Shown here piece after piece: positions 75 through 38,328 of a stretch of DNA of 64,000 nucleotides (position 1 is its first letter; the number at the start of each line of letters is the position of its first letter). The translations under genes and the position numbers were made by a program. The notes below the pieces were generated by a model. That model was not told where the DNA came from. It ran no database searches and saw nothing but the letters and a program-made list of their open reading frames with translations. This DNA is from a virus: IMG/VR virus record IMGVR_UViG_3300049484_000177, positions 34,384 through 98,383 of that record; one strand, written 5' to 3'.

Positions 75-182
75 CAATTAGTCCGAACCGTTTATCTCTG
101 TGCCCACTTGAAACTTCCGGCCAGTTATAGTAAACTCCCACAGTAGACTTTCCCCTCTAACACCTTTGGCGAGGAGTTGGTG

Positions 183-677
183 GTGACAAAATCTCTGTGC
201 CACAGTGCTTGGTCTAAGCACGAAGGATTAGCTAGAACTATAACATGGCGTGTTGTTAGGGAGTACGGTGGGGATTATGAGGAACTATTCTCAGAATCAC
301 TCGTCCTCTTCGTCCAAGCCTGCAAAACGTGGGAGAAGGACAAGGGGTCGTTATCCAATTGGTTAGCCTGGAAGATATACCGAGGTCTCCAGGAGCGTAA
401 GCGAACAGAGGCTAGGCATAAGTCCATAACCGGGCCGATTGCAGATGGTGAATTGCTTGGTTCACTCTTTCACCACGATAAGAACATCGACCTAATTTGG
501 AAGGACCTCTCGGACGATAGCAGGCTCGTCTTACATATATTGTTCGGCATGGACGTTAAGTTCCGCAACACTAGTTTGGTGAGGATGTCGCTGAGGCTGA
601 AAGTACAGAAGGAGACTGGATGGGGCAATCATAAGGTAACTAACTGCTTTCGAGAGATTGAAGCAGCTCTCACTTGA
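183..677 (+). CDS. Sigma-70 region 2-like small protein
   Basis: About 164 residues. Residues roughly 30-75 (YEELFSESLVLFVQACKTW, then NWLAWKIYRGLQERKR) read like sigma-70 region 2: an acidic helix followed by an aromatic helix and a basic run. A clear region 4 is not visible; the C-terminus holds a helical segment that could be a reduced HTH. It may be a phage transcription factor, or a DNA-binding protein that only shares the fold. The frame is open from TTG 177, but GAGGAG at 171-176 fits GTG 183 best. A terminator follows directly, so it is a single-gene unit. Confidence 0.5.
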   Translation: MTKSLCHSAWSKHEGLARTITWRVVREYGGDYEELFSESLVLFVQACKTWEKDKGSLSNWLAWKIYRGLQERKRTEARHKSITGPIADGELLGSLFHHDKNIDLIWKDLSDDSRLVLHILFGMDVKFRNTSLVRMSLRLKVQKETGWGNHKVTNCFREIEAALT

Positions 678-10322: not shown

Positions 10323-10577
10323 ATGGATCACTACAACAAACTCTCGTACCAAGAGATCGAGAAGCTGGTCGATTATATTGACAAGGGGATGCGGACAATG
10401 AATGGTGATACCACCATGATCCCTTTGACAGCAAGGCAGGTAGCCATTCTATTGTGGACCTACGCAAAGAGAACAAGGCCAATGCCAGGGGCTTATATCT
10501 TCGCTGATATTCAGTGTATGCTGAGGGAAGGCCAGCTCTCAAACATTTCTCCGGATGAAAGGAGTCCTTTTGAGTGA
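10323..10577 (+). CDS. Small helical hypothetical protein
   Basis: 84 residues, all-helical in appearance (YNKLSYQEIEKLVDYIDKGM; TARQVAILLWTYAKRTRP). It ends with TGA overlapping the GTG start of the next gene. Not recognised. Confidence 0.55.
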   Translation: MDHYNKLSYQEIEKLVDYIDKGMRTMNGDTTMIPLTARQVAILLWTYAKRTRPMPGAYIFADIQCMLREGQLSNISPDERSPFE

Positions 10578-12805
10578 AAGGATTCTTCAAACGATCTGAT
10601 TTGTTATTGATGGGCAGCAAGCCTGCTAATCTAGCCCCTCGCTGTAAAGTGTGTCGGTTGTATAGGGGATGCAATAGCCCCAAAATGCCGGTTACAGGTG
10701 AGGGTCGGTTAGGTGTGTTAGTGATTGCGGAAGCGCCGGGAGCGAAAGAGGATGAGCGAAACGAGCAGCTTATAGGTAAGGCTGGTCAGCGGCTACGGAG
10801 TACACTCGAACCGTTAGGGGTTGATCTAGACGAGGACTGCTGGAAGACCAATGCAATCATTTGTTTTATAAGTCCAAAAGTGACAATTTATACAAGCAAA
10901 GGTTACAAACAGATAAGTAGAATACAAGTAGGGGATCTCGTGTTAACTGACAAGGGAAGATTCAAGCGAGTAATATCAAGATCTGTGGATCTCCCTTTGC
11001 ATCAAAGACAGAATAAAAGAAAGCTGGTAGATATCAGATTCGCAAACCATAAGTTAACAGTCACGGCAGATCACTTATTTTATACTAGAGATGGATGGAA
11101 AAGAGCAGATCAACTATTAACTGGTGAAGAAGTAAGAGCGCTGGGAGAAAAATGCATAGTTTGTGGTGTTGTGTATTTCAAACAACCAGGTAGGTTCGAT
11201 ACCGCAGAGAGTACATGCTCTCCTTGTTGTCATAACATAATGGTAAGTAGAAAGAACGGACCAGCTATATCAAAGAGCTTGAGACAACAATACGAGACAG
11301 GACAACGTGACCCAATATTAATCACTAACAAAGCTCATTTAGCAGTCAAGAAGCTTATGCTAGATGGTAAATGGGCTGATATGACTGCACGAACTGATGA
11401 AGGAAAAAAGAGGGCCTATAGGACAAATGCACAACTGAGACAAGGACATAATAATCTTAAACCAGGACAATGGATAGGTGATTGGGAGCAAACGATAGCT
11501 AATTATCTAAAATCAGAGAACATAGAATACTTCTCGCAATATGCTATAGGTTCCAGAAATGTAGATTTTTATTTACCTGACCACAAGCTCATGATCGAGG
11601 TAGAAAATAACAATAGACCAGAATCGTACTTCTCCAGAAGAATTAAATTAGCAGAATCAATGGGTTGTAAACTAGTCTTTTTGCAATCAACTAACCCATT
11701 GAGAGAATTGCAGAGATTACTAAAGAATGACACACACAACTATTACTTTACATGGATGCCACTCAAATCAGTAACAATAAGACTCCCCGCACGGCAGGAG
11801 TATCTTTATTGTATCGAAGTAGAGGAGGATGCCAGTTATGTAGCCAAAGGATTAGTCAGCCACAATTGTCGCCCCCCAAATAATAGAACACCAACCGAAG
11901 AGGAGTTAGATTGCTGCCGTCCTAACCTAGTAAAAACCATCGAGGAGTTGCAACCTCATACAATCATTGTATTAGGGGAGGTAGCACTCAGGCAGCTCAT
12001 CAATCCGTGGTGGCACAGAGATATTGGTGGTATAGGAAGGTGGGCCGGATTTAGGATACCACTACAATCGTTGAATGCTTGGGTCTGCCCCACCTGGCAC
12101 CCGTCGTATCTTGAGCGGGAAGGTGCTAAGGATGGTAACGTTCTTCAGTTATGGTTTAGTAAGCATCTAGAATCGGCATTTGAAAAGAAGGAACGTCCTT
12201 GGTCTATAGTACCTAACTACCAAGCCATAGTGGAACAGGCACTCGATCCATCTAGCATCATGGAAGAGATGAAAGACTATAGTGGCATGGCCAGTTTCGA
12301 TTATGAAACAAACATGCTGAAGCCCGATAACAATAAGGCTGCTTGTGTTAGCTGTTCGATTGCTTGGGGTAAGGGTAGAGTATCACGTTGTATTGCTTAT
12401 GTTATGACCGCAGAGAACAAAAGGCTCACCCGATCCTTCTTACGCTCCCCTATTCCGAAGATAGGAGCATCAATCAAGTTCGAAGAGCGTTGGTCGCTGC
12501 GTCATTTCGGAACTAGGGTTCGTAACTGGTTCTGGGACACAATGCTATGTGCTCACGTTTTAGACAATCGGCCAGGCATAACATCCCTTGATTTCCAAGC
12601 ATTCGTTCGATTAGGATTACCAACATACAGTGCTCATATATCTCCGTTGCTCAAAACTAAGGATGGGACAACCGTCAACCAGATCCTAACGGAGATTAGT
12701 ACCTCAGAGCTACTCAAGTATAATGGGCTGGATGCCATATCGGAATTTGAGGTAGCGGTTAGTCAGATGAAGGAGTTGGGTCAACGTCCACCATGGATCT
12801 CTTAG
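10574..12805 (+). CDS. Uracil-DNA glycosylase (family 4-like) / 3'-5' exonuclease fusion, interrupted by an intein
   Basis: 743 residues before splicing, 408 after. The N-terminal extein is a UDG superfamily domain: [22 protein letters not shown] and, after the intein, [20 protein letters not shown] and WHPSYLE. The Cys residues match the iron-sulfur ligands of family 4 enzymes, and the Cys after the intein is one of them. From about residue 555 follows a DnaQ-like proofreading exonuclease of the polymerase I type ([45 protein letters not shown]). It stops exactly where a family A polymerase would enter its thumb; that part is the gene at 14836. SPO1-like phages have UDG-polymerase fusions, so this is a split version. 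GTG 10574 has AAGGAG 9 bases upstream. Confidence 0.85.
10862..11866 (+). mobile_element. Intein with a PD-(D/E)XK-like homing endonuclease domain
   Basis: 335 codons. The first residue is Cys ([17 protein letters not shown]), then VGDLVLTD and the TxxH block ([20 protein letters not shown]). The end is [19 protein letters not shown] followed by Cys, so class 1 splicing is expected. Between the halves lie a four-Cys zinc-finger-like segment (CIVCG...CSPCC) and a nuclease-like domain with [19 protein letters not shown], the Vsr/DUF559-like PD-(D/E)XK pattern, rather than LAGLIDADG. The DNA is visibly more A/T-rich than the flanks. Removal leaves ...NAII joined to CRPPNN. Confidence 0.85.
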
Positions 12806-13438: not shown

Positions 13439-13572
13439 CCCGGCACGGTAGCATTGCCGGGCATTTCCGTTAGAGCGACACGGCAATAACGTCGTGTGGC
13501 AGCGATGTCAACGTACCCACTGACTCGCTGCAAAAAGCAGTGTGGCCCCGAGCTGCTTGTACAATCTCGGGG
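13439..13572 (+). other. Row of strong stem-loops before the adenine methyltransferase
   Basis: Three 7-base-pair stems in sequence: CCCGGCA/TGCCGGG (13439-13461), GCAGCGA/TCGCTGC (13499-13531), CCCCGAG/CTCGGGG (13546-13572). The last is followed by CTTATT, so it may terminate weakly. They separate the csrA/tRNA unit from the methyltransferase. They could be terminators or processing signals. Confidence 0.5.
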
Positions 13573-13609
13573 CTTATTCAATACTTACCCTTACAAGCAA
13601 AGACTACCT

Positions 13610-14833
13610 ATGGACAATAAACCATCCAAATACAAAGCACCGTTCCCATACTTCGGCAGCAAGAGCATCATAGCTGGGGAGGTATGGAAGAGGTTTGGGA
13701 AGGTGCATAACTATATCGAGCCGTTCTTTGGGTCTGGGGCAGTGTTGTTAGCTCGACCCCTTCCGTTCTCAGGTAAAGAAATATGCAATGACAAGGATGG
13801 CATGGTGAGTAATTTCTGGAGGGCAGTTGCCCACGATCCAGAAAAGGTGGCTCATTATGCTGATTGGCCAATTAACGAAAATGACAAACACGCCCGTCAC
13901 ATATGGTTGGTTAACAGGAAAGATTCATTACAGACCAAACTAGAGGGAGATCCAAATTATTACAACGCGAAGATAGCTGGATGGTGGGTGTGGGGCCTGT
14001 GTCTACATATTGGGGGCGGATTCTGCTCAGGAGAAGGTGGATGGAGAATAATCGATGGAGAATTAACGAGAGGTAATAATGAAGAAGATTCTCCTACTAT
14101 AGATAGGTCGAGACAGCAAACTATAGGAAACAGAGGAGTAGCTAAGGCTGTAACTAGATCCAGGCAACATCTCAAAGGGAATAGAGGAGTAGCTAAGGCT
14201 GTAACTAGATCCAGGCAATATATGGTATCCAGACAAGGAATCATCAAAACAATCACAGAAGAGTGGGGGGTAAACAGGTCTGTTATAAATATAGGAGCCA
14301 AGAGAGGTGTACTAAGATCAAGTGAAAGAGGTAACTCAGAAGGGGCCGGACTAGGCAACGGTACTATTTATGAATGGTTTGATGCACTATGCGGACGTAT
14401 GAAATCGGTCCTGATTTGTTGTGGCGAATGGTATCGTGTGTGTGGGGGAAAGAGAGGGGATGCATTAGCTGCCATGTTATCTGGTGGTCCGACGTGTGGT
14501 GTGTTCTTGGACCCTCCTTATTCTTTTGATGCAGGTCGTGATATGAATCTCTATAGATACGAATCAGGTAGTGTAGCGTATGCCGTGCGTGAATGGTGTC
14601 TAAAATATGGAGACGACTCGCGATTTCGTATAGCGCTCTGTGGGTATGAAAGTGAGCATAATATGCCTGATTCATGGGAGTGTCTAGAGTGGAAAGGCAC
14701 AGGTGGAATGTCTAACATGGCCAAAAAGAAAACCAGAGCGAAAGATAACGCCATACGCGAACGTATATGGTTCTCACCACACTGTCTAAAAGCAAAGGAT
14801 CGTCTTCCACTACTTAAGATGTTAGATAAATAA
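13610..14833 (+). CDS. DNA adenine-N6 methyltransferase (Dam/D12 class)
   Basis: About 407 residues from ATG 13610. FPYFGSKS and YIEPFFGSGAVLL form the SAM-binding motif I; VFLDPPYSFD is the catalytic motif IV. The C-terminal part carries the target strand motif (GGMSNMAKKK). It is longer than usual (about 270) because of a Ser/Arg/Gly-rich insertion at residues about 165-255 that contains a 36-base direct repeat. Phage methyltransferases of this type protect DNA against restriction. ORF extension upstream of 13610 covers the stem-loops and is rejected. Confidence 0.85.
   Translation: MDNKPSKYKAPFPYFGSKSIIAGEVWKRFGKVHNYIEPFFGSGAVLLARPLPFSGKEICNDKDGMVSNFWRAVAHDPEKVAHYADWPINENDKHARHIWLVNRKDSLQTKLEGDPNYYNAKIAGWWVWGLCLHIGGGFCSGEGGWRIIDGELTRGNNEEDSPTIDRSRQQTIGNRGVAKAVTRSRQHLKGNRGVAKAVTRSRQYMVSRQGIIKTITEEWGVNRSVINIGAKRGVLRSSERGNSEGAGLGNGTIYEWFDALCGRMKSVLICCGEWYRVCGGKRGDALAAMLSGGPTCGVFLDPPYSFDAGRDMNLYRYESGSVAYAVREWCLKYGDDSRFRIALCGYESEHNMPDSWECLEWKGTGGMSNMAKKKTRAKDNAIRERIWFSPHCLKAKDRLPLLKMLDK
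14132..14218 (+). repeat. 36-bp direct repeat within the methyltransferase gene
   Basis: AGAGGAGTAGCTAAGGCTGT opens both 36-base copies, 14132-14167 and 14183-14218, which start 51 bases apart. Each encodes RGVAKAVTRSRQ. The unit is in frame, so copy number could change without breaking the gene. Confidence 0.85.
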
Positions 14834-14835
14834 CA

Positions 14836-16224
14836 ATGGCAAGTAATCCAACATCCTTAGATGCTTATAGGCTCATGCACGATGGGTCTATCGCTCTGTC
14901 TCAGTTGGAACATAATGGCATTCGGGTTGATATGGACCATCTCCGCAAAGCAAAGGCTGAAGTGGAGGAATCAATAAGACGTCTCAAAGCTAATCTATTA
15001 TCTAGTGACGTCTACCAAAGCCAGAGAAAGATGTTCGGAGACAAAGCAAAGATCACCAGCCGCCAGCAGTTAGCTAAGGTTCTAGAGAAAGATTATAAGG
15101 CAACCATACCAAAGACCGAAAGCGGTAAGAACTATAACCTGGACGAACTTGTCCTTCAGGCAGTTGCATCCAAACACGACGTCCAATACTGCCGGGACTT
15201 CATGGAACACGAAAGTCTCGTCAAGCTTAATGGTACATATCTGGATGGTGTAATACGGGAGGTTGTGGATGGTTACCTTCACGTTATATTCAATCTACAT
15301 TTGGCTAGGACGCACCGTTCAAGTTGCGATAGCCCAAACCTACAAAATGTACCAATTCGTGATCCTCTCATAGCTAAATACATTCGCACAGCATTCATCC
15401 CACGCCCTGGTCACGCTCTGGTAGAGATCGATTTCAGTGCGTTGGAGTTTCGTATTTGTGCTTGCTTTTATCGTGACCCAGCTATGGTCCAATATGCCAG
15501 CGATCCTGACAAAGACATTCACCGGGATTGTGCAGCTAAGATATTCAAAGCCAACCGGGATGACATAACGAAACAGGATCGTTTCTGTGCAAAGAACCTG
15601 TTCGTGTTCCCCGAGTTGTATGGGGATTTCTACTTACAGTGTGCTCAGAATCTGTGGGATGCTATGAGTAGGCATTCCCTAACCATACAAAACACGCCAG
15701 CAAAGGAGTGGCTGAGCAATAATGGGGTCACTAGGTTAGGTGAATGTGATTCGAAGAAGAAGCCTGTACCTGGCACCTTCGAACATCACATGAAGAAGTT
15801 CGAGGATGAATTCTATCAGTGGTTTCCGGTGCTAGATGAACGTAGGGACAAGTTCTGGGCTGAGTACAAGAAGACCGGTCAGTTCGATCTAATGACTGGG
15901 TTTGTTATTAGGGGTGTGTTCAAACGTAACTTCGTCCTTAACTGTATCATTCAAGGCCCGGCGTTTCACTTGTTGCTGTGGTCCCTGATACAGATAGTTA
16001 GGTGGACCCAAAAGCACAAGACCAAGACAAAGGTAGTGGCACAGATTCACGATAGTATACTGGCCGACGTCCATCTGAGTGAGCTAGATGAGTACATGGA
16101 ATTCGCCGTTAAGGTTATGACCCAAATGGTGAAAGAGCACTATCGTTGGGTTATAACTCCTTTGAATGTAGAGGCTGAAATTGGAAGATTGAACTGGTAC
16201 GAAAAGGAGAAGCTTGCAATATGA
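14836..16224 (+). CDS. polA: Family A DNA polymerase, polymerase domain only
   Basis: 462 residues covering thumb, fingers and palm. It opens where Pol I leaves the exonuclease domain (LSQLEHNGIRVDMDHLRKAK). THRSSCDSPNLQNVP is the template-binding strand, EIDFSALEFR motif A, RFCAKNLFVFPELYG motif B (one residue longer than Pol I), and QIHDSILADV motif C (HDS instead of HDE). No exonuclease domains are present: 3'-5' activity is in the protein at 10574 and 5'-3' in the one at 22320. It is 2 bases behind the methyltransferase and overlaps the next gene by 4. It is the replicative polymerase by context. Confidence 0.9.
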   Translation: MASNPTSLDAYRLMHDGSIALSQLEHNGIRVDMDHLRKAKAEVEESIRRLKANLLSSDVYQSQRKMFGDKAKITSRQQLAKVLEKDYKATIPKTESGKNYNLDELVLQAVASKHDVQYCRDFMEHESLVKLNGTYLDGVIREVVDGYLHVIFNLHLARTHRSSCDSPNLQNVPIRDPLIAKYIRTAFIPRPGHALVEIDFSALEFRICACFYRDPAMVQYASDPDKDIHRDCAAKIFKANRDDITKQDRFCAKNLFVFPELYGDFYLQCAQNLWDAMSRHSLTIQNTPAKEWLSNNGVTRLGECDSKKKPVPGTFEHHMKKFEDEFYQWFPVLDERRDKFWAEYKKTGQFDLMTGFVIRGVFKRNFVLNCIIQGPAFHLLLWSLIQIVRWTQKHKTKTKVVAQIHDSILADVHLSELDEYMEFAVKVMTQMVKEHYRWVITPLNVEAEIGRLNWYEKEKLAI

Positions 16225-31348: not shown

Positions 31349-32371
31349 CTGTCCATCCCGCCCCTACCTACTCACCCAAGCATACCCCTCCCTTAGTAGG
31401 TCACGGTCTCCCCAAAGGTAGCACGAAATGGACGGGCTGTTCCCCTTCCCCACATTTCCACGAACACGGGAGCCCTCCCGTCCAATCCTTCCCCGTGGGC
31501 ATAGGTGGCTTGCACAGGACACCGGGTCTGGGGGAGGTTGTGTGGTCCCGTACACAAGAGACCCCCGAATCGATTCTAGGGGCATCCTGGTGGGTTTGGT
31601 GGGACTCCCCCTTCCGGGGAGTAGCCATCCCAAGAGGCCCCCAAAGTAGCTATTTATTGACCACGGAACAATTCTGGGGATTCCAACCGGATTGGACTAC
31701 ACCTAAAGGCATATGGAGCCTAAACTTGCCATGGGCAAGGACGCCCCGCGGGGGACCGGCAGTGAGCCGGGGGTGGCAGGAAGCCGCCTCAATGCTCTTT
31801 GGCAACACGGGCTTGGGGGTCGATGAGGGATGCAAATCGCCCCACCCCAGCCCACGAACATTACGCAAAACTGGTCGAGAAGCGCGGCTGCTAATCACAG
31901 GTTCCTCCAAGGCCCTTTCAGGTCCCGGCAAGACCGGGCATAGCTAGGAAACCCGGAGAGAAGAGGACAGCCGGTCGAGCCCAGGGTGGTGCAAAAGATC
32001 CACTGCAACGCGAACCAGAAGTAGCGACGGGTCCCGAGCGGATCATGGAAACTGGATTTCCCTTCCCTAGTATCTCTTGCTAGTGCCGCTCGCGGAACGT
32101 AGGGTCGTCAAGACCCCAAAGAAGGTTGCCAAGCAACTGCACTGTAGTCCCTCTAGTCCAGGTGGGTGCAGTTGGACAGGGCATGATGCCACGTATTTAG
32201 CCATCCCTAACGTTGGTTCGTTAACTCAATTTGCCGACAGCGTCGAGCGGCAGGACGCCGCGATGGGAGGATGGCACCTGTGGATAAACGAAGGGTGGAC
32301 CCGCTCCGGTCCACCCCGTACGGCATTGGTAGCCGTGCCTAGTGAGTTACCATTTTCACAGGGAGCGAAAC
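31349..32371 (+). ncRNA. Very large structured RNA candidate
   Basis: About 1 kb with no frame that looks like a protein and no ribosome binding site. Fourteen or more clean stems line up: ACCTACT/AGTAGGT (31366-31401), GGACGGG/CCCGTCC (31430-31483), GGGTCT/AGACCC enclosing TTGTGT/ACACAA (31524-31564), ACTCCCC/GGGGAGT (31604-31622), CTTGCC/GGCAAG (31725-31739), CCGGC/GCCGG (31756-31770), GGGCTTGGGG with CCCCA...AGCCC (31809-31853), CCCGG/CCGGG (31924-31938), GGGTC/GACCC (32102-32116), CAACTGCAC/GTGCAGTTG (32134-32174), GCGTC/GACGC (32240-32258), GGGTGGACC/GGTCCACCC (32293-32316), ACGGC/GCCGT (32320-32336). Size and setting recall ROOL and GOLLD ornate phage RNAs, but I cannot assign a class. 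Its 3' end supplies the ribosome site of the next gene. Confidence 0.7.
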
Positions 32372-32785
32372 ATGCAGACTATGATGTTGGATCTACAGAA
32401 TGCACAGATGCTGCTAAACACCATACAGGAGACTGGCCGAGCAGCCGAGGTTGATTGGGTCAACCAAACGATCCGCGTCTTGTCAGAGGTCAAGACACAC
32501 CCAACCAAAGTGTTGTCGTCCGGCCCGATGACATACCAGGATATCCTGCTGGAGATTTCCGAACGGGGAATCACCCGCACGGGCATCAAGCCGAAGGTCA
32601 CCAACCACAAGATCGAATGTGGGCTGTGCAACACCACTATAACGAGTGTTGAGGCAGCCATCGATGCGGGTTGGTTACCATCCTACTACGATGGGGACGA
32701 CGAGGTGCTCGGCCCGGTGTGCCCAGAGTGCACCAAATCCAAACTGGAAATAGACCCAGAAACGGAGGAGTATTTCCTGCGATAA
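32372..32785 (+). CDS. Hypothetical protein with zinc knuckles
   Basis: About 137 residues from ATG 32372, which follows CACAGGGAGCGAAAC, the same ribosome site found in the leader family. N-terminal half helical (QTMMLDLQNAQMLLNTIQET); C-terminal half with ECGLCNTTIT and CPECTKSK, a zinc ribbon. Confidence 0.65.
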   Translation: MQTMMLDLQNAQMLLNTIQETGRAAEVDWVNQTIRVLSEVKTHPTKVLSSGPMTYQDILLEISERGITRTGIKPKVTNHKIECGLCNTTITSVEAAIDAGWLPSYYDGDDEVLGPVCPECTKSKLEIDPETEEYFLR

Positions 32786-32794
32786 TGAAATGAA

Positions 32795-32877
32795 CTGCTC
32801 GAATCCGAGGGGCTGCGGAACAGCCCTGAGGACCCGTGCAGTACGGGAGTTAGTAAACCATAGGTGAGGAGCGAACG
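32795..32877 (+). promoter_or_regulatory. Leader RNA motif, copy A
   Basis: Begins CTGCTCGAA 9 bases after the preceding stop (32783-32785). Stem 1 is GGGCTG (32810-32815) with CAGCCC (32821-32826) and loop CGGAA; stem 2 CCCGT/ACGGG (32833-32847); then GAGTTAGT and the ribosome site AGGAGCGAACG before ATG 32878. The spacer differs slightly from the other copies (AAACCATAGGTG). Confidence 0.75.
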
Positions 32878-33261
32878 ATGAAGACCACAGTAGAGAGAAC
32901 AATGAACCGAGCGATGACGGTTGGCGATCTGCTTTCCGAATTGGATGGCTTGCCGATGGACGCCCCGGTTGTGTTTGTGTGCGACTATGGAGACTACTGC
33001 CATACTCAACAAGCATTGCCGGTCAGCAGCATCGAGGTTGTCACAGCCGAACGGTTGTCAGACTCGGGGTACAGCAAATCGGGTGTTGAGCTGGTGGATG
33101 GACACAGTAATGTGTTCTACTGCCCCACCTGCGACGAGGAGTATGATGGGTTAGTGTGCTGCCCGAAATGCAAAACGGCATGTGTTACGGAGGATGGAAC
33201 CCCGGCAGAAACGGAAGAGGACGGGAGGAAAGTAGTGGTCCTGAAAATGGAACGGGACTAA
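32878..33261 (+). CDS. Hypothetical protein with zinc ribbon
   Basis: 127 residues. MTVGDLLSELDGLPMDAPVV and CDYGDYCHTQQALPV form an N-terminal domain I have seen in other phage and bacterial proteins of unknown function; CPTCDEEYDGLVCCPKC is a zinc ribbon. Expressed behind leader copy A. Confidence 0.7.
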   Translation: MKTTVERTMNRAMTVGDLLSELDGLPMDAPVVFVCDYGDYCHTQQALPVSSIEVVTAERLSDSGYSKSGVELVDGHSNVFYCPTCDEEYDGLVCCPKCKTACVTEDGTPAETEEDGRKVVVLKMERD

Positions 33262-33513
33262 CGGAAAGAAAGTTAGGGGAACTTTGGAAAAAGGGATTCC
33301 TAACTAGTTGACTCCCTACACCCAGTCGTTAGTATTGTGAATGACCGGGAAGGGAGTAGAAGGTCGGAATTTTCTCCCACGGACGGGAGCGGATTGAAAC
33401 CAGCCAGACCAGGCTGGTAGGAAAGGGAAAGAAAGGGGGCTGATCGGGAAGGGTTGTACTCTTCCGATTACGACAGCCTCCCACAGTGTAGGTTCTCCAC
33501 AAGGAGCGATGGT
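33262..33513 (+). promoter_or_regulatory. Long structured leader before YDWN paralogue 2
   Basis: 252 bases without a gene. Stems: AGTTAGG/CCTAACT (33271-33305), ACTCCC/GGGAGT (about 33311-33358), CTCCC/GGGAG (33374-33388), CCAGCC/GGCTGG (33400-33418), and GGGGGCTG with CAGCCTCCC enclosing ATCGGGAAG/CTTCCGAT (33436-33482). It ends CACAAGGAGCGATGGT before ATG 33514; ACAAGGAG fits a CsrA-type site overlapping the ribosome binding site. Confidence 0.6.
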
Positions 33514-33891
33514 ATGAAGACTCTCGAATCGTTTGATTTCGGATCGCGTGCGGTCAGCAGCAAGAAGTACAATTGGGACGAGATCCTGAGCGGCGAGATC
33601 GTGGTGCTCGAAGCCGGAAAGGACTTCGAGTGCAAGCCGGGAGGTATCCGGCTGACCGTGAAGAAGAACGCCGAGAAGTTGGGGTTGAAGGTGCGGTCGA
33701 AGGTGGTCGATGGCAATGTGGTCATCCAAGCCTTCAAGCCGACCGAGGAGGAGAAAGCCTTCTCCGCCGCAGCCAAGGGCAAGAAGGGTCGCAAGATGGG
33801 TGACGAAGACGAGGAGATCGAGGACGTCGAGGAGGAAGAGGACGAGGTCGATGTCGAGGAGAAGAAACCGACTCCCCGACGACGCAAGTAG
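33514..33891 (+). CDS. YDWN-domain protein, paralogue 2, with acidic tail
   Basis: 125 residues. The YDWN domain fills the first 75: KYNWDEILSGEIVVLEAGKD, a basic helix KKNAEKLGLKV, and a strand ending VVIQAFKP. The rest is low-complexity Lys/Glu/Asp ending in PRRRK, as in proteins that bind nucleic acid with a charged tail. Shares the domain with 6074 and 37122, and like them follows a long structured leader. A strong terminator follows. Confidence 0.75.
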   Translation: MKTLESFDFGSRAVSSKKYNWDEILSGEIVVLEAGKDFECKPGGIRLTVKKNAEKLGLKVRSKVVDGNVVIQAFKPTEEEKAFSAAAKGKKGRKMGDEDEEIEDVEEEEDEVDVEEKKPTPRRRK

Positions 33892-33927
33892 GTCCGTAAC
33901 TGGAACTGGACGGCGGGACGTACAAGA

Positions 33928-33954
33928 GGGGTGGGTGCAAACCCACCCCTTTTT
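33928..33954 (+). terminator. Strong Rho-independent terminator
   Basis: GGGGTGGGT (33928-33936), GCAA tetraloop, ACCCACCCC (33941-33949), T5 (33950-33954). Confidence 0.95.
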
Positions 33955-33978
33955 GCGTCTTGTAGACACAGGACAAAG

Positions 33979-34065
33979 TGCTCGAACACAATGGGCTGTA
34001 GGTTAGCTCATTGTGCCCGTGCATTTCGTGCGGGAGTTAGTGACACAGGTTTTAGGAGCGAAACG
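33979..34065 (+). promoter_or_regulatory. Leader RNA motif, copy B
   Basis: TGCTCGAA, then an 11-pair stem CACAATGGGCT/AGCTCATTGTG (33987-34015, one G-U), then CCCG/CGGG (34016-34034), GAGTTAGTGACACAGG and TTTTAGGAGCGAAACG before ATG 34066. The stem sequence differs entirely from copies A, C and D but pairing is preserved. Confidence 0.8.
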
Positions 34066-35265
34066 ATGAAGACTATGAAGAGGGAAGAGTTGGTTGCAAA
34101 GCGGGTAGGCAATGCAACGGTCGTCATGTCAGAGGCATTGGCTGATGAAACCAACGCCGAGGCATCCAGTATCACGCCCCAAGCCAAGTTCAAGATGGCA
34201 CGGGACGAGATGAACAAGAGCCTCATCGAACGGCATGACGAGATTGATTTGATACTGGTCGCTTTGCTGGCTGGGGAAAACCCGCTGCTCGTGGGTCCTC
34301 CTGGCACAGGCAAATCGCTGCTCATGGATTCGCTGATGCGATGGATGAGCAACGGGACCAAGAAGTTCAGCATACTACTCTCCAAGTTCTCGATGCCGGA
34401 CGAGGTCTTTGGACCTATCGACATCAACGGACTGAAGGCGGGAAAGTATGCAAGGGTCACGGTTGGTCGGCTGCCCGAGGCTCACGTGGCATTCATTGAC
34501 GAGGTATTCAAAGCCTCGCCCGCCATCCTGAATAGCCTGCTAAAGGTCCTCAACGAGCATCTGTTTCCGATTGGTGATGGCACCGAAAAGAAATGCCCGC
34601 TCAGAGAGGCATTGGCTGCGAGCAACGAATGGCCCGATGCATTGGAGTTGGGAGCCCTGTTCGATAGGTTCCTGCTTCGGAAAACGGTCCACTATGTGAG
34701 CCGGATCGGGCGGCGACGGTTGCTGCGGGAACGGAATCACGAACCCGTATTCAGCCACACCATCTCCCCCAATGAGCTAGACAAGGCTCATGACGAGGCG
34801 ATGGGACTGGAGTTGAGCGATCGGGCTTACGAAGTGCTGGACGAGATTCTGGCTGAACTGAATAAGGCTGGAATCGACCCTGGCGATCGCCGGATGAAGA
34901 AGGCGATCAACATTGCTCGTGCTTATGCCTACCTACGAGGGTCGGCATCGGTCGAGCCGGTTCATTTGGAAGTGCTGAAGTATGTGCTGTGGGTGGACCC
35001 AGAGCAGGAGATGAAAGCACACAAGATCGTCTGCTCGCTTTCCAATCCGGTCGGGTCGAAGATCACGGAGTTGCTTATGCAGGCTGCTTCGGTCGTGGAC
35101 GTTAGTGTTCCCGAAGAGGCGGTAAGCAAGCTGCAGGACATTCAGAAGCAGCTCAAGGAACTTCCGGATCACGATCGGCGGGAGTTGGCGGTACGGTTCG
35201 TCGGCAACGAGATTAAAAAGCAGTACAAAAAGATCACGGGGCTGGACGAACAATCATTCGAGTAA
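34066..35265 (+). CDS. MoxR-family AAA+ ATPase
   Basis: 399 residues from ATG 34066. LLVGPPGTGKSLLMDSLMRW is Walker A, HVAFIDEVFKASPAILNSL Walker B with its helix, and AASNEWPD sensor 1. The C-terminal lid (SDRAYEVLDEILAELNKA; RRMKKAINIARAYA) fits RavA/MoxR. MoxR ATPases act with VWA-domain proteins as chaperones for metal-loading or complex assembly. The partner follows at 35355, and both have the same leader RNA. In a phage the target is unknown. Confidence 0.9.
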   Translation: MKTMKREELVAKRVGNATVVMSEALADETNAEASSITPQAKFKMARDEMNKSLIERHDEIDLILVALLAGENPLLVGPPGTGKSLLMDSLMRWMSNGTKKFSILLSKFSMPDEVFGPIDINGLKAGKYARVTVGRLPEAHVAFIDEVFKASPAILNSLLKVLNEHLFPIGDGTEKKCPLREALAASNEWPDALELGALFDRFLLRKTVHYVSRIGRRRLLRERNHEPVFSHTISPNELDKAHDEAMGLELSDRAYEVLDEILAELNKAGIDPGDRRMKKAINIARAYAYLRGSASVEPVHLEVLKYVLWVDPEQEMKAHKIVCSLSNPVGSKITELLMQAASVVDVSVPEEAVSKLQDIQKQLKELPDHDRRELAVRFVGNEIKKQYKKITGLDEQSFE

Positions 35266-35266
35266 A

Positions 35267-35354
35267 CTGCTCGAACCTGACGAGCCTCATGGACGAGGCT
35301 CAGACGGCCCGTGCAGTACGGGAGTTAGTGACACAGGTATAGGGAGCGAAACGC
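35267..35354 (+). promoter_or_regulatory. Leader RNA motif, copy C
   Basis: CTGCTCGAACCTGA one base after the preceding stop, stem 1 GAGCCTC/GAGGCTC (35282-35301, loop ATGGAC), stem 2 CCCGT/ACGGG (35308-35322), GAGTTAGTGACACAGG, TATAGGGAGCGAAACG, ATG 35355. The GGA in the first loop and the GGA of the ribosome site are spaced as a possible dual CsrA site. Confidence 0.85.
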
Positions 35355-36779
35355 ATGACTAAAGAAACACAAGAGGAACTACTCAAAATGCTCGACATTG
35401 GTCTTTCCGATGTTGGGGATGAGGAGTTATTGGCGGAGGGTCTGTCCTTCGACGAGTTTGGTCCCGAAGATAGGGAAGAGGAGCTATCCGAAACGGTTCT
35501 TCGACAGGATGATTGGGATCGAGCAGTAGGGGAGGAAGTTATGAGGCGGCACAGCTTAGGCGACGACGCTAAAGCTGTGGCTGACTTCCACAGCGCCTCA
35601 TACCATCTGTCACCAGAGCCTGCTGGCAAATGTATCAACAAACGTCGGCAGGAATTCATGGACACACTGATGGAATCTCCCGAGTACAAGCAGCTACACG
35701 AATCTACTCGCCAGAATCGTCTGGCTAGTGAGGTGGCTGCTGTACGGTTCACAAGGCAATACCAAGCCTTGGTAGAGAAGGATAAGAAGAATCCACCTGC
35801 CGGGATGGGATTGCCTGGTGAGGGAGAGGGAGAACCGGATGGGAACGTCCTAGTGGCGGTTGGTAAGGCTGTGCAAGGGGCACAGGAGGAAGTGGATCAG
35901 ATCGAAGATATGACTTCCGCCTTGGGTGGGGATATCGGTGGCTTGGGACAGGGCGACGCAGCCCAGTCCGCGAACATCGATAAGATCCGCGATACCTACG
36001 AACGTCTCCGCGGTAGCAAACGGCTGCGGGACATCTTCGAGCGTGCTGGGGCTTACATTCGATCAGCCAAAGGATTGCAGAAAAACAAGACCCAGCACGG
36101 ATTCGACGATATCGTAGGAGTGGAACAGGCCGGAGACGTAGGACGTCTGCTGGCTAGTGAGTTAGCCTACCTCGACGACCCTGACTTGGAACTGGATCTG
36201 CTTCGGCGGATCGTGGAGAACCAAGCCATGTGCCAACTGTACCAAGGGGTCGAGGCACAAATGAAAGGTCCGGTCGTAGTAGTGGTTGACGAAAGCGGGT
36301 CGATGGCTGGTGCACCAATCGCCAATGCGAAAGCATTAGCATTGGCAATGGCATGGATCGCCAAGCACCAGAAACGGTGGTGTGCGTTGGTGGGATTCTC
36401 CGGTGGCACCAGTGGGACGATGTGTGTACTGAAGCCGGGTAAATGGGACCAATCAGACTTGTTAGATTGGTTGGATCATTTCTACGGCGGAGGCACCACA
36501 TTGGATGTACCGCTCGATAAGCTGCCCAATGAGCACTGGGCAGCAATGGACCCCCCACGAGGGAAAACGGACGTAATCATGGTCACGGATGCTATGGTTA
36601 CGGCTCCTCAGCGGATGGTGGAGCAGTTCAACGCGTGGAAGGTGAAGGAAAAGGTTCGTTGCATCTCCATAGTCCTTGGCTCACGGGCTGGGGACCTAGA
36701 GAAGGTTAGCAACGAAGTACATTGCATTCCGGGGTTGACCGTGGATTGCACGGCGGCTGCAAGTTGTATGTCAATCTAA
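35355..36779 (+). CDS. VWA-domain protein, partner of the MoxR ATPase
   Basis: 474 residues. The C-terminal third is a von Willebrand A domain with an intact MIDAS: VVVVDESGSMAGAPI (DxSxS), GGGTTLDVPL (Thr) and VIMVTDAM (Asp). The N-terminal 250 residues are helical and acidic, as in ViaA/CoxE-like partners. Together with the 34066 gene this gives a RavA-ViaA-like pair. It ends 17 bases before the next gene. Confidence 0.9.
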   Translation: MTKETQEELLKMLDIGLSDVGDEELLAEGLSFDEFGPEDREEELSETVLRQDDWDRAVGEEVMRRHSLGDDAKAVADFHSASYHLSPEPAGKCINKRRQEFMDTLMESPEYKQLHESTRQNRLASEVAAVRFTRQYQALVEKDKKNPPAGMGLPGEGEGEPDGNVLVAVGKAVQGAQEEVDQIEDMTSALGGDIGGLGQGDAAQSANIDKIRDTYERLRGSKRLRDIFERAGAYIRSAKGLQKNKTQHGFDDIVGVEQAGDVGRLLASELAYLDDPDLELDLLRRIVENQAMCQLYQGVEAQMKGPVVVVVDESGSMAGAPIANAKALALAMAWIAKHQKRWCALVGFSGGTSGTMCVLKPGKWDQSDLLDWLDHFYGGGTTLDVPLDKLPNEHWAAMDPPRGKTDVIMVTDAMVTAPQRMVEQFNAWKVKEKVRCISIVLGSRAGDLEKVSNEVHCIPGLTVDCTAAASCMSI

Positions 36780-36796
36780 CCAGGAGGAGAGAAACT

Positions 36797-37006
36797 ATGA
36801 ATGAAAGGACCAAGCAGATCGAGGAGATTTTGAGACAGGTGAGGGAGGAGGGATTTCAAAACGGACTGGCTGAGGGGTATAGAGCAGCAGAGAGGATCGC
36901 TATTCTGTGGGGTGTCAATCACAAACTGAAGGTGCCTCATTCGGTGGAATGGCTGATTGATGAATCCCGCAAGGAATTGGAAAACCTGAAGATCAAACTG
37001 ACATAG
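36797..37006 (+). CDS. Small helical hypothetical protein
   Basis: 69 residues from ATG 36797 (AGGAGGAG upstream). Charged helices (RTKQIEEILRQVREEGFQNG). The VWA gene stop is 17 bases before. Not recognised. Confidence 0.6.
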   Translation: MNERTKQIEEILRQVREEGFQNGLAEGYRAAERIAILWGVNHKLKVPHSVEWLIDESRKELENLKIKLT

Positions 37007-37011
37007 CAGAG

Positions 37012-37121
37012 GACGCCCGAAAGGGCGTAATGCCCTACGATTGGTTATGTTACCAATCGTAACCGTTCCAAGGCGGCATTCATACCTATGGGCTGGTAGG
37101 TACACAGGCGAGGAGCGAGAC
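37012..37121 (+). promoter_or_regulatory. Structured leader before YDWN paralogue 3
   Basis: ACGCCC-GAAA-GGGCGT (37013-37028, GNRA loop); AATGCC/GGCATT (37029-37080) encloses ACGATTGGT/ACCAATCGT (37037-37060, 9 pairs); TACCTA/TAGGTA (37083-37102); then CACAGGCGAGGAGCGAGAC before ATG 37122. Different from copies A-D upstream but shares the CACAGG...GGAGCGA end. Confidence 0.65.
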
Positions 37122-38237
37122 ATGAACAAGACAACGAAGAGAGCCAAGCACGTGCAGGCGAAGGAATTAACCGCCGGGCTGAAGGGCATGAAGTGGCTGG
37201 GGGTTGTGATCACGTGGAACAGTGGACCGGAGGGTGCTACCCACGGACACAGCAAGGTCATGAATGCTTTGGGCGTTGCTGGTCTGGATACGAAGTACGA
37301 GCGGGAACTGTTGCCGAGAAACGCCTTTCAACGGGCAGCTAAGAAGCTGTCCGACGAACGGATCATCGACGTCTTCCGCGAGGACGAACGGGAGTTAGTC
37401 TTCCAGTTCACACGGAAGCATTTGAATTCCCTACAGTGGGAATTCCGCAAGGAGACATTCGTCTCCCTGAACAAGAACACCGGCAAGGTCCTGTCGGACG
37501 ACAAAGCCATTGCATTGGAAGCACAGGCAGAGGTCGACAAGGCTATGGACCTTCGCACCAATGCGGACGTGACCCGCATAGTGAATCGGTTGTTCGAAGA
37601 CCACGCCGATCTGATCCCAATGCGGGATGCTGGTGGTGTGTATTTCGTGCCGCAAGAGCATTGCGGGTTTGTCGCGAGGGTCGAGACATTCCTAACTCAG
37701 CTCGGTGGGCGAATCGACCAGATCCCGGTGCCTGCTGGTACGGCTACTGGAGACCGCACGATCCAAAACGCGGTTAGTGCCACGATGGCGAAGCTGATTG
37801 AGGACCATATGGATGCGGTCAAGAAGTTCGAGCCTGCTACAAGGAAAGATACCATCCAACGGCAGGCGGACGAGATCAAGCACACCCGGATCAAGATCGA
37901 AGCGTATGCTCATTATCTCGGTGAGCGGCAGAGCGAACTGATCAAGAAGATCAGCGAGGCTAACAAACTCCTGAAGGAGCAAGTGGAAGCGATCGGCGGC
38001 GGAGCCGAAGCTTACTCCGAGTATGATTGGAATACCATACTCGATGGCAAGGTCCACAAACTGGTCCAGGGAGAGGACTACTTGGCAACGACCAGAACTT
38101 GCTTGGTTATGGCAAGGGCCCATGCGAAGAAGCAGGGCATGCGAATCCGGTCGCGGATCATGGACGAGGGGAAGGCGATCGTGATGCAGGCGGTTCCGAT
38201 GAAAGAGGGAGACAAAGAGGAGAGCGACGAGGAATAG
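37122..38237 (+). CDS. YDWN-domain protein, paralogue 3, with DUF6744-like core
   Basis: 371 residues. The body (about 1-300) resembles large phage proteins of the DUF6744 type, with a long helical region (DEIKHTRIKIEAYAHYLGER; LIKKISEANKLLKEQVEAIG). The last 70 residues are the YDWN domain: EYDWNTILDGKVHKLVQGED, basic helix AHAKKQGM, strand VMQAVP, then an acidic tail. It is the only paralogue with an extra large domain. It is followed by leader copy D. Confidence 0.75.
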   Translation: MNKTTKRAKHVQAKELTAGLKGMKWLGVVITWNSGPEGATHGHSKVMNALGVAGLDTKYERELLPRNAFQRAAKKLSDERIIDVFREDERELVFQFTRKHLNSLQWEFRKETFVSLNKNTGKVLSDDKAIALEAQAEVDKAMDLRTNADVTRIVNRLFEDHADLIPMRDAGGVYFVPQEHCGFVARVETFLTQLGGRIDQIPVPAGTATGDRTIQNAVSATMAKLIEDHMDAVKKFEPATRKDTIQRQADEIKHTRIKIEAYAHYLGERQSELIKKISEANKLLKEQVEAIGGGAEAYSEYDWNTILDGKVHKLVQGEDYLATTRTCLVMARAHAKKQGMRIRSRIMDEGKAIVMQAVPMKEGDKEESDEE

Positions 38238-38238
38238 A

Positions 38239-38328
38239 CTGCTCGAACCTGATGGGGCTCCAATGAGCCCCTGATGGCCCGTGCATTCTGTATGGGAGTT
38301 AGTGACACAGGTATAGGGAGCGAAACGT
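38239..38328 (+). promoter_or_regulatory. Leader RNA motif, copy D
   Basis: CTGCTCGAACCTGA one base after the preceding stop, stem 1 GGGGCTC/GAGCCCC (38254-38271), stem 2 CCCGTG with TATGGG (38278-38296, G-U pairs), GAGTTAGTGACACAGG, TATAGGGAGCGAAACG, ATG 38329. The 3' 30 bases are nearly identical to copy C although the stems differ. Confidence 0.85.

What the first reader, a model, noticed from the sequence alone, without database searches (positions are those of the whole stretch)
32795..38328. A leader RNA motif repeated before four genes, with a covarying stem
Copies at 32795, 33979, 35267 and 38239 share CTGCTCGAA, then stem 1, CCCGT...GGG stem 2, GAGTTAGTGACACAGG and GGGAGCGAAACG before ATG. 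Stem 1 is GGGCTG/CAGCCC, CACAATGGGCT/AGCTCATTGTG, GAGCCTC/GAGGCTC and GGGGCTC/GAGCCCC: different sequence, same pairing. This is direct evidence for selection on RNA structure. Copies A, C and D start within 10 bases of the preceding stop codon.
Basis: seen in the sequence. Interest (0 to 1): 0.9.

Follow-up and report, generated by a model that had tools for sequence, protein, structure and literature searches.

The report
Repeated folded RNA before phage genes
A virus of planctomycete bacteria carries the same foldable stretch of RNA just before four of its genes, and distant relatives keep its shape while its letters change, which marks a new RNA control element whose job is still unproven.

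Summary
Four copies lie before the genes at 32878, 34066 (MoxR AAA ATPase), 35355 (vWA) and 38329, and stem 1 covaries. The "linear" CTGCTCGAA is not a linear motif: it is the 5' strand of a longer stem and pairs with CCCGTGCAG, so the core is one irregular hairpin of about 55 nt. A model built from the four copies finds a fifth copy in a different viral contig (E=0.0036). An extended-hairpin model built from those five finds a sixth in a Planctomycetaceae genome (E=1.9e-4). Both new copies sit at the DUF6744 stop codon, directly before MoxR. On six members, 13 of 18 pairs change on both sides (0 of 500 shuffles). Rfam has no match. No conserved promoter, U-tract terminator or Shine-Dalgarno sequestration was found. 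Best reading: an intercistronic RNA element of planctomycete phages acting on the mRNA (processing or insulation, possibly a switch). The mechanism is inferred. Several related phages use other repeated leaders here; at least one has clear promoters.

The parts
32791..32844 (+). Copy A: extended irregular hairpin core, before gene 32878-33261 (Zn-ribbon-like, 127 aa)
   Evidence: R3 70.8 bits (in training set); pairs counted
33974..34027 (+). Copy B: extended hairpin core, before the MoxR gene; 11 continuous pairs replace the G.A internal loop
   Evidence: R3 59.1 bits (training)
35263..35319 (+). Copy C: extended hairpin core, before the vWA gene; upstream stop TAA is at its first bases
   Evidence: R3 69.9 bits (training)
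38235..38289 (+). Copy D: extended hairpin core, before gene 38329; upstream stop TAG is at its first bases
   Evidence: R3 71.7 bits (training)
32833..32847 (+). Stem 2 (P2) of A, CCCGT-GCAGT-ACGGG; overlaps the 3' strand of the extended hairpin
34016..34034 (+). Stem 2 (P2) of B
35308..35322 (+). Stem 2 (P2) of C
38278..38296 (+). Stem 2 (P2) of D
34034..34049 (+). GAGTTAGTGACACAGG, conserved segment after P2 (B); also 35322-35337 (C) and 38296-38311 (D); altered in A, absent from L014/L092
34055..34064 (+). Shine-Dalgarno GGAGCGAAAC of B; the others are at 32868 (A), 35343 (C), 38317 (D)
33933..33955 (+). Intrinsic terminator between gene 33514-33891 and copy B; shows that B belongs to the downstream gene
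34066..35265 (+). MoxR AAA ATPase (bpMoxR PF20030, 2.8e-51)
35355..36779 (+). vWA-domain protein (weak VWA_2; phrog_24053 1.5e-25)
37122..38237 (+). DUF6744 protein; third gene of the conserved module
32290..32371 (+). Possible divergent relative (E): CGAA + hairpin + second hairpin + GAGTTA + CACAG + GGAGCGAAAC before gene 32372; not detected by the models
   Evidence: not met

Best explanation
The copies are members of one cis-acting RNA family of planctomycete phages and prophage-type loci: an irregular hairpin of about 55 nt that sits between an upstream stop codon and the Shine-Dalgarno of the next gene. Shown: the pairing, its covariation, its conserved inner mismatches, its place directly before MoxR in three genomes and before three further genes here. 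Inferred: it acts in the polycistronic mRNA as punctuation. The long helix is a likely site for host RNase III-type cleavage or a 5' stabiliser, so that each downstream gene gets its own 5' end and an open ribosome site, much like T7 intercistronic processing hairpins. The competing stem 2 may add control, since a ribosome ending translation at the upstream stop would cover the 5' strand and free the 3' strand to form stem 2.
For: Six members, 93.5% standard pairs, 13 of 18 pairs changed on both sides, 0/500 shuffles; slid structures pair 27-45% (this alignment was fitted to the structure, but the unfitted five-row alignment gives 92% and 12 of 18). Held-out detection: R2 from the four copies finds L014; R3 then finds L092, both at the DUF6744 stop, directly before MoxR. 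L092 keeps the fold with an unrelated 13-bp apical stem (MFE -72.4). Leaders A-D fold better than shuffles, z about -2.1 to -3.4. B lies after an intrinsic terminator, so the element goes with the downstream gene. Planctomycete genomes G023, G025 and G026 have RNase III. The Shine-Dalgarno of A-D is at least as open as in shuffles.
Against: No transcript data; processing is inferred from position, length and irregularity only. The conserved letters in the lower stem and inner loops suggest specific recognition, more than a generic RNase III site needs. The close relative L010 (64% identical DUF6744 to L014) has no copy at the same junction, and no homolog was found in about 20 other related viral contigs, so the element is gained or lost easily. 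Copy B lacks the G.A loop and a nearby upstream stop.
Confidence: 0.42

Rival explanations
1. Bistable or pseudoknotted regulatory leader: the extended hairpin and stem 2 are two conserved alternative folds, switched by a ribosome at the upstream stop, a ligand or a protein.
For: The pairs 10-49 and 11-48 of the extended fold are kept, the first with changes (C-G, U-A, U.G), while the same 3' strand forms stem 2 in all six members, CCCGC-GCTGTT-GCGGG in L092 and CCACG..CGTGG in L014. In A, B and D the two folds are within 2 kcal/mol. The stop codon lies in or next to the 5' strand in C, D, L014 and L092.
Against: Stem 2 could arise by chance in L014 (6%) and L092 (18%); in L014 it is shifted by one base. 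C clearly favours stem 2 and L092 clearly favours the hairpin. Neither fold hides the Shine-Dalgarno reliably.
Confidence: 0.22
2. Operator for an RNA-binding protein (for example a phage protein) that represses or activates translation of the genes behind it, a small regulon of four genes.
For: Conserved letters and fixed mismatches in the lower stem (U.U, A.C, tandem G.A) with free apical letters; four copies in one genome; conserved GAGTTAGTGACACAGG in B-D.
Against: No binding protein identified. B replaces the G.A loop with A-U pairs. GAGTTAGTGACACAGG is missing from A, L014 and L092.
Confidence: 0.18
3. Promoter or DNA operator repeated before genes, as in several related phages; the hairpin would be a side feature.
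For: Relative L013 has nine GTGT/TTG-N17-GATACT sites against 0.04 expected, most before genes of the same region, and L058 three TTGCAC-TATATA sites at promoter spacing. The phage encodes a sigma-70 region-2 protein.
Against: No -35/-10 pair at fixed spacing in the four copies. Letters of the apical stem change while pairing stays, which a DNA site does not require. A phage-type RNA polymerase gene was not found (but the control search found none anywhere, so that test is empty).
Confidence: 0.1
4. put-like or attenuator element acting on transcription (antitermination or termination).
Against: No U-tract after the hairpins; a terminator upstream of B cannot be acted on by RNA made after it; a repeat before each gene is not needed for processive antitermination.
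Confidence: 0.05

Closest known systems
Start-associated sequences (SAS/ESAS) of Cluster K mycobacteriophages (PMC3203893)
   Same: Repeated elements directly before the start codons of a subset of non-structural phage genes, with a Shine-Dalgarno-like part and, in about half, an inverted repeat with variable spacer upstream.
   Different: ESAS repeats conserve the letters of their 17-bp arms; here the apical stem letters change and pairing is kept. Consensus GGGATAGGAGCCC is not found; host phylum differs.
T7-type intercistronic RNase III processing hairpins (from general knowledge)
   Same: Irregular hairpins of about 60 nt between genes of a polycistronic phage mRNA, with inner loops, at several junctions.
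   Different: Cleavage is unknown here; conserved letters are stronger; not homologous.
Rfam cis-regulatory leaders and riboswitches
   Same: Structured leader before a coding region with possible alternative folds.
   Different: No Rfam family matches, even at relaxed threshold; no ligand logic is apparent.

Membership tests
Cluster K SAS/ESAS | 13-bp GGGATAGGAGCCC near the start codon | tested here: not met
   Sequence here is GGGAGCGAAACG / AGGAGCGAAACG
Cluster K SAS/ESAS | 17-bp inverted repeats with a shared consensus | tested here: not met
   Apical arms differ in sequence between copies
T7-type RNase III sites | Irregular intercistronic hairpin of two helical turns or more | tested here: met
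   About 25 layers, 18 canonical pairs
T7-type RNase III sites | Cleavage by host RNase III | not testable with these tools
   Only the presence of RNase III genes in planctomycete genomes was checked
Any Rfam family | Covariance-model score above the gathering threshold | tested here: not met
Intrinsic terminator | G+C stem followed by a U-tract | tested here: not met
   No U-tract after stem 1 or stem 2
Sigma-70 promoter repeat | Two hexamers at 16-18 nt in every copy | tested here: not met
Shine-Dalgarno-sequestering leader | Shine-Dalgarno paired in the stable fold | tested here: not met
   Unpaired probability A 0.64, B 0.93, C 0.62, D 0.51, not below shuffles
put-like antiterminator | Suppression of downstream terminators by nascent RNA | not testable with these tools
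   Only the adjacency of two hairpins was seen

The most novel reading that the evidence does not exclude
A new class of phage RNA switch placed on the upstream stop codon: two conserved, mutually exclusive folds read out whether a ribosome is finishing the previous gene and set expression of the next, reused at four junctions of one genome and found before MoxR in relatives.
Probability: 0.15. Interest if true: 0.75.

Novelty: new variant of a known kind. Interest (0 to 1): 0.55.

Why it matters
It is a structured RNA family absent from Rfam, supported by compensating changes across three genomes of poorly studied planctomycete viruses. Having four paralogous copies in one genome plus two outside gives a ready natural experiment on how an RNA shape is kept while its letters change. 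It also ties to a MoxR-vWA-DUF6744 module that several related phages control with quite different repeated leaders.

Tried and rejected
Shine-Dalgarno sequestration by TGCTC/GAGCG: seen in the minimum-energy fold when the 5' tail was cut off, but improbable with the tail included. Fully conserved ACCUG/CAGGU long-range helix: C and D only. Resemblance of GTTAGTGACACAGGTATAGGGAG to SP6/T7 promoters: spacing off, lost in A and B. Exact-pattern scans of viral contigs with the 3' part and the two-stem core: no hit. A core pattern scan gave L014 and ten hits that do not form the fold and look like coding sequence. R3 hits L093-L096, L098 and L099 in genomes: palindromes or other contexts, not before MoxR as far as examined; L019 lacks the apical stem. 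E, F, G and H leaders (32372, 33514, 37122, 39350) contain hairpins but are not recognised by the models. Phage database DNA search: none.

Full report
Check. The window is bases 34384-98383 of a 98,383-nt IMG/VR virus record. They precede a Zn-ribbon-like gene, a MoxR AAA ATPase, a vWA protein and a small unknown gene. Rfam has no matching family, even at relaxed threshold. No phage record matches at DNA level.

Chance. GAGTTAGTGACACAGG with up to three mismatches occurs four times against 0.6 expected. No shuffle of 500 reaches the covariation score, and slid structures pair under half of their cells. Leaders A-D are more stable than shuffles (z about -2.1 to -3.4), while random windows average z = -0.1.

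Homologs. Profile searches with MoxR, vWA and DUF6744 proteins brought in several dozen related viral and planctomycete loci. The vWA homologs in bacterial genomes with 38-42% identity are all from Planctomycetes, which suggests the host group. A model from the four copies alone (R2) has as its best non-training match, in 490 kb, L014:6477 (E=0.0036), between the DUF6744 stop and the MoxR start. L014 is a different viral contig with about 42% identity in vWA.

Revised structure. The 5' box is one strand of a longer stem: ACUGC-U-CG-AA-CC-UGA pairs with GA-U-GG-CC-CG-U-GCAGU around the variable apical stem. On five rows aligned without reference to this structure, 92% of cells pair, 12 of 18 pairs change on both sides and 0/500 shuffles reach this. 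Examples: col 6-53 is U-A in A-D and A-U in L014; col 10-49 is C-G in A-D and U-A in L014; the outer pairs 2-57 and 3-56 use A-U, G-C, C-G and G-U. R3, built on this fold, found a sixth member in a Planctomycetaceae genome: L092, 29.7 bits, E=1.9e-4 for the genome, exactly between DUF6744 and MoxR. It keeps the lower stem and the tandem G.A and has an unrelated 13-bp apical stem. The six-member count is 13 of 18 pairs, 0/500 (this alignment was fitted to the model, so it leans that way).

Second fold. So it is either an alternative fold or, with the lowest helix only, a pseudoknot. Its chance occurrence is 6% in L014 and 18% in L092, so support is moderate. In A, B and D both folds are within 2 kcal/mol.

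Function. Copy B lies 22 nt after an intrinsic terminator, so the element goes with the downstream gene. There is no U-tract, no promoter pair at fixed spacing and no hidden Shine-Dalgarno. Upstream stop codons lie in or within 9 nt of the motif's 5' end in five of six members. The most economical reading is an mRNA-level intercistronic element for processing or insulation; RNase III genes are present in the planctomycete genomes tested. A ribosome-coupled switch is the most interesting rival. None of this was tested by experiment.

Context. Several relatives carry other repeated leaders in the same region. L013 has nine GTGT/TTG-N17-GATACT promoter-like sites against 0.04 expected, and L058 has three TTGCAC-TATATA sites at promoter spacing. 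L016, L064 and L066 have further phage-specific repeats. The closest published kind is the SAS/ESAS elements of Cluster K mycobacteriophages, of unknown function (PMC3203893), from which this differs in letters and in covarying arms.

Noticed in passing
L013 3416-11500: Nine promoter-like sites GTGT/TTG-N17-GATACT (0.04 expected), several with a palindrome placed so that the -35 element is in its loop and the arm letters vary; most lie before genes of the MoxR-vWA-DUF6744 region.
   Followed up: partly
L058 5654, 7163, 9973; L016 7740 and 9230; L064; L066: Other phage-specific repeated leaders before genes in the same module of related phages; L058 looks like promoters.
   Followed up: partly
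window 34066-38237; L010, L011, L013, L014, L092: MoxR, vWA and DUF6744 form a conserved module in planctomycete viruses and prophage-type loci, in two gene orders.
   Followed up: partly
window 177-677; L013 12639-13181: Phage-encoded sigma-70 region-2 proteins (weak Pfam matches), which could read phage-specific promoters.
   Followed up: partly
window 10574-12805 and 14836-16224: DNA polymerase appears split in two frames with a methyltransferase-like ORF (13496-14833) and a predicted tRNA-Ile between them; the N part has an HNH-like patch.
   Followed up: no
window 31350-32280: About 0.9 kb with several inverted repeats and no convincing gene, just before the leader cluster.
   Followed up: no
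window 37066-37115: Leader of the DUF6744 gene has CGTTCC pairing with the Shine-Dalgarno GGAGCG (unpaired probability about 0; 1% of shuffles as low).
   Followed up: partly
window 32362-32386 and 34055-34080: Leaders E and B share bases into the coding region, GGAGCGAAAC(G)ATGmAGACTATGA; genes at 32878 and 33514 also start ATGAAGAC.
   Followed up: no
L064 1-130: Tandem 49-bp repeat with palindrome CGGCTGCTCGAA..CTGAGCAGCCG at the contig end.
   Followed up: no
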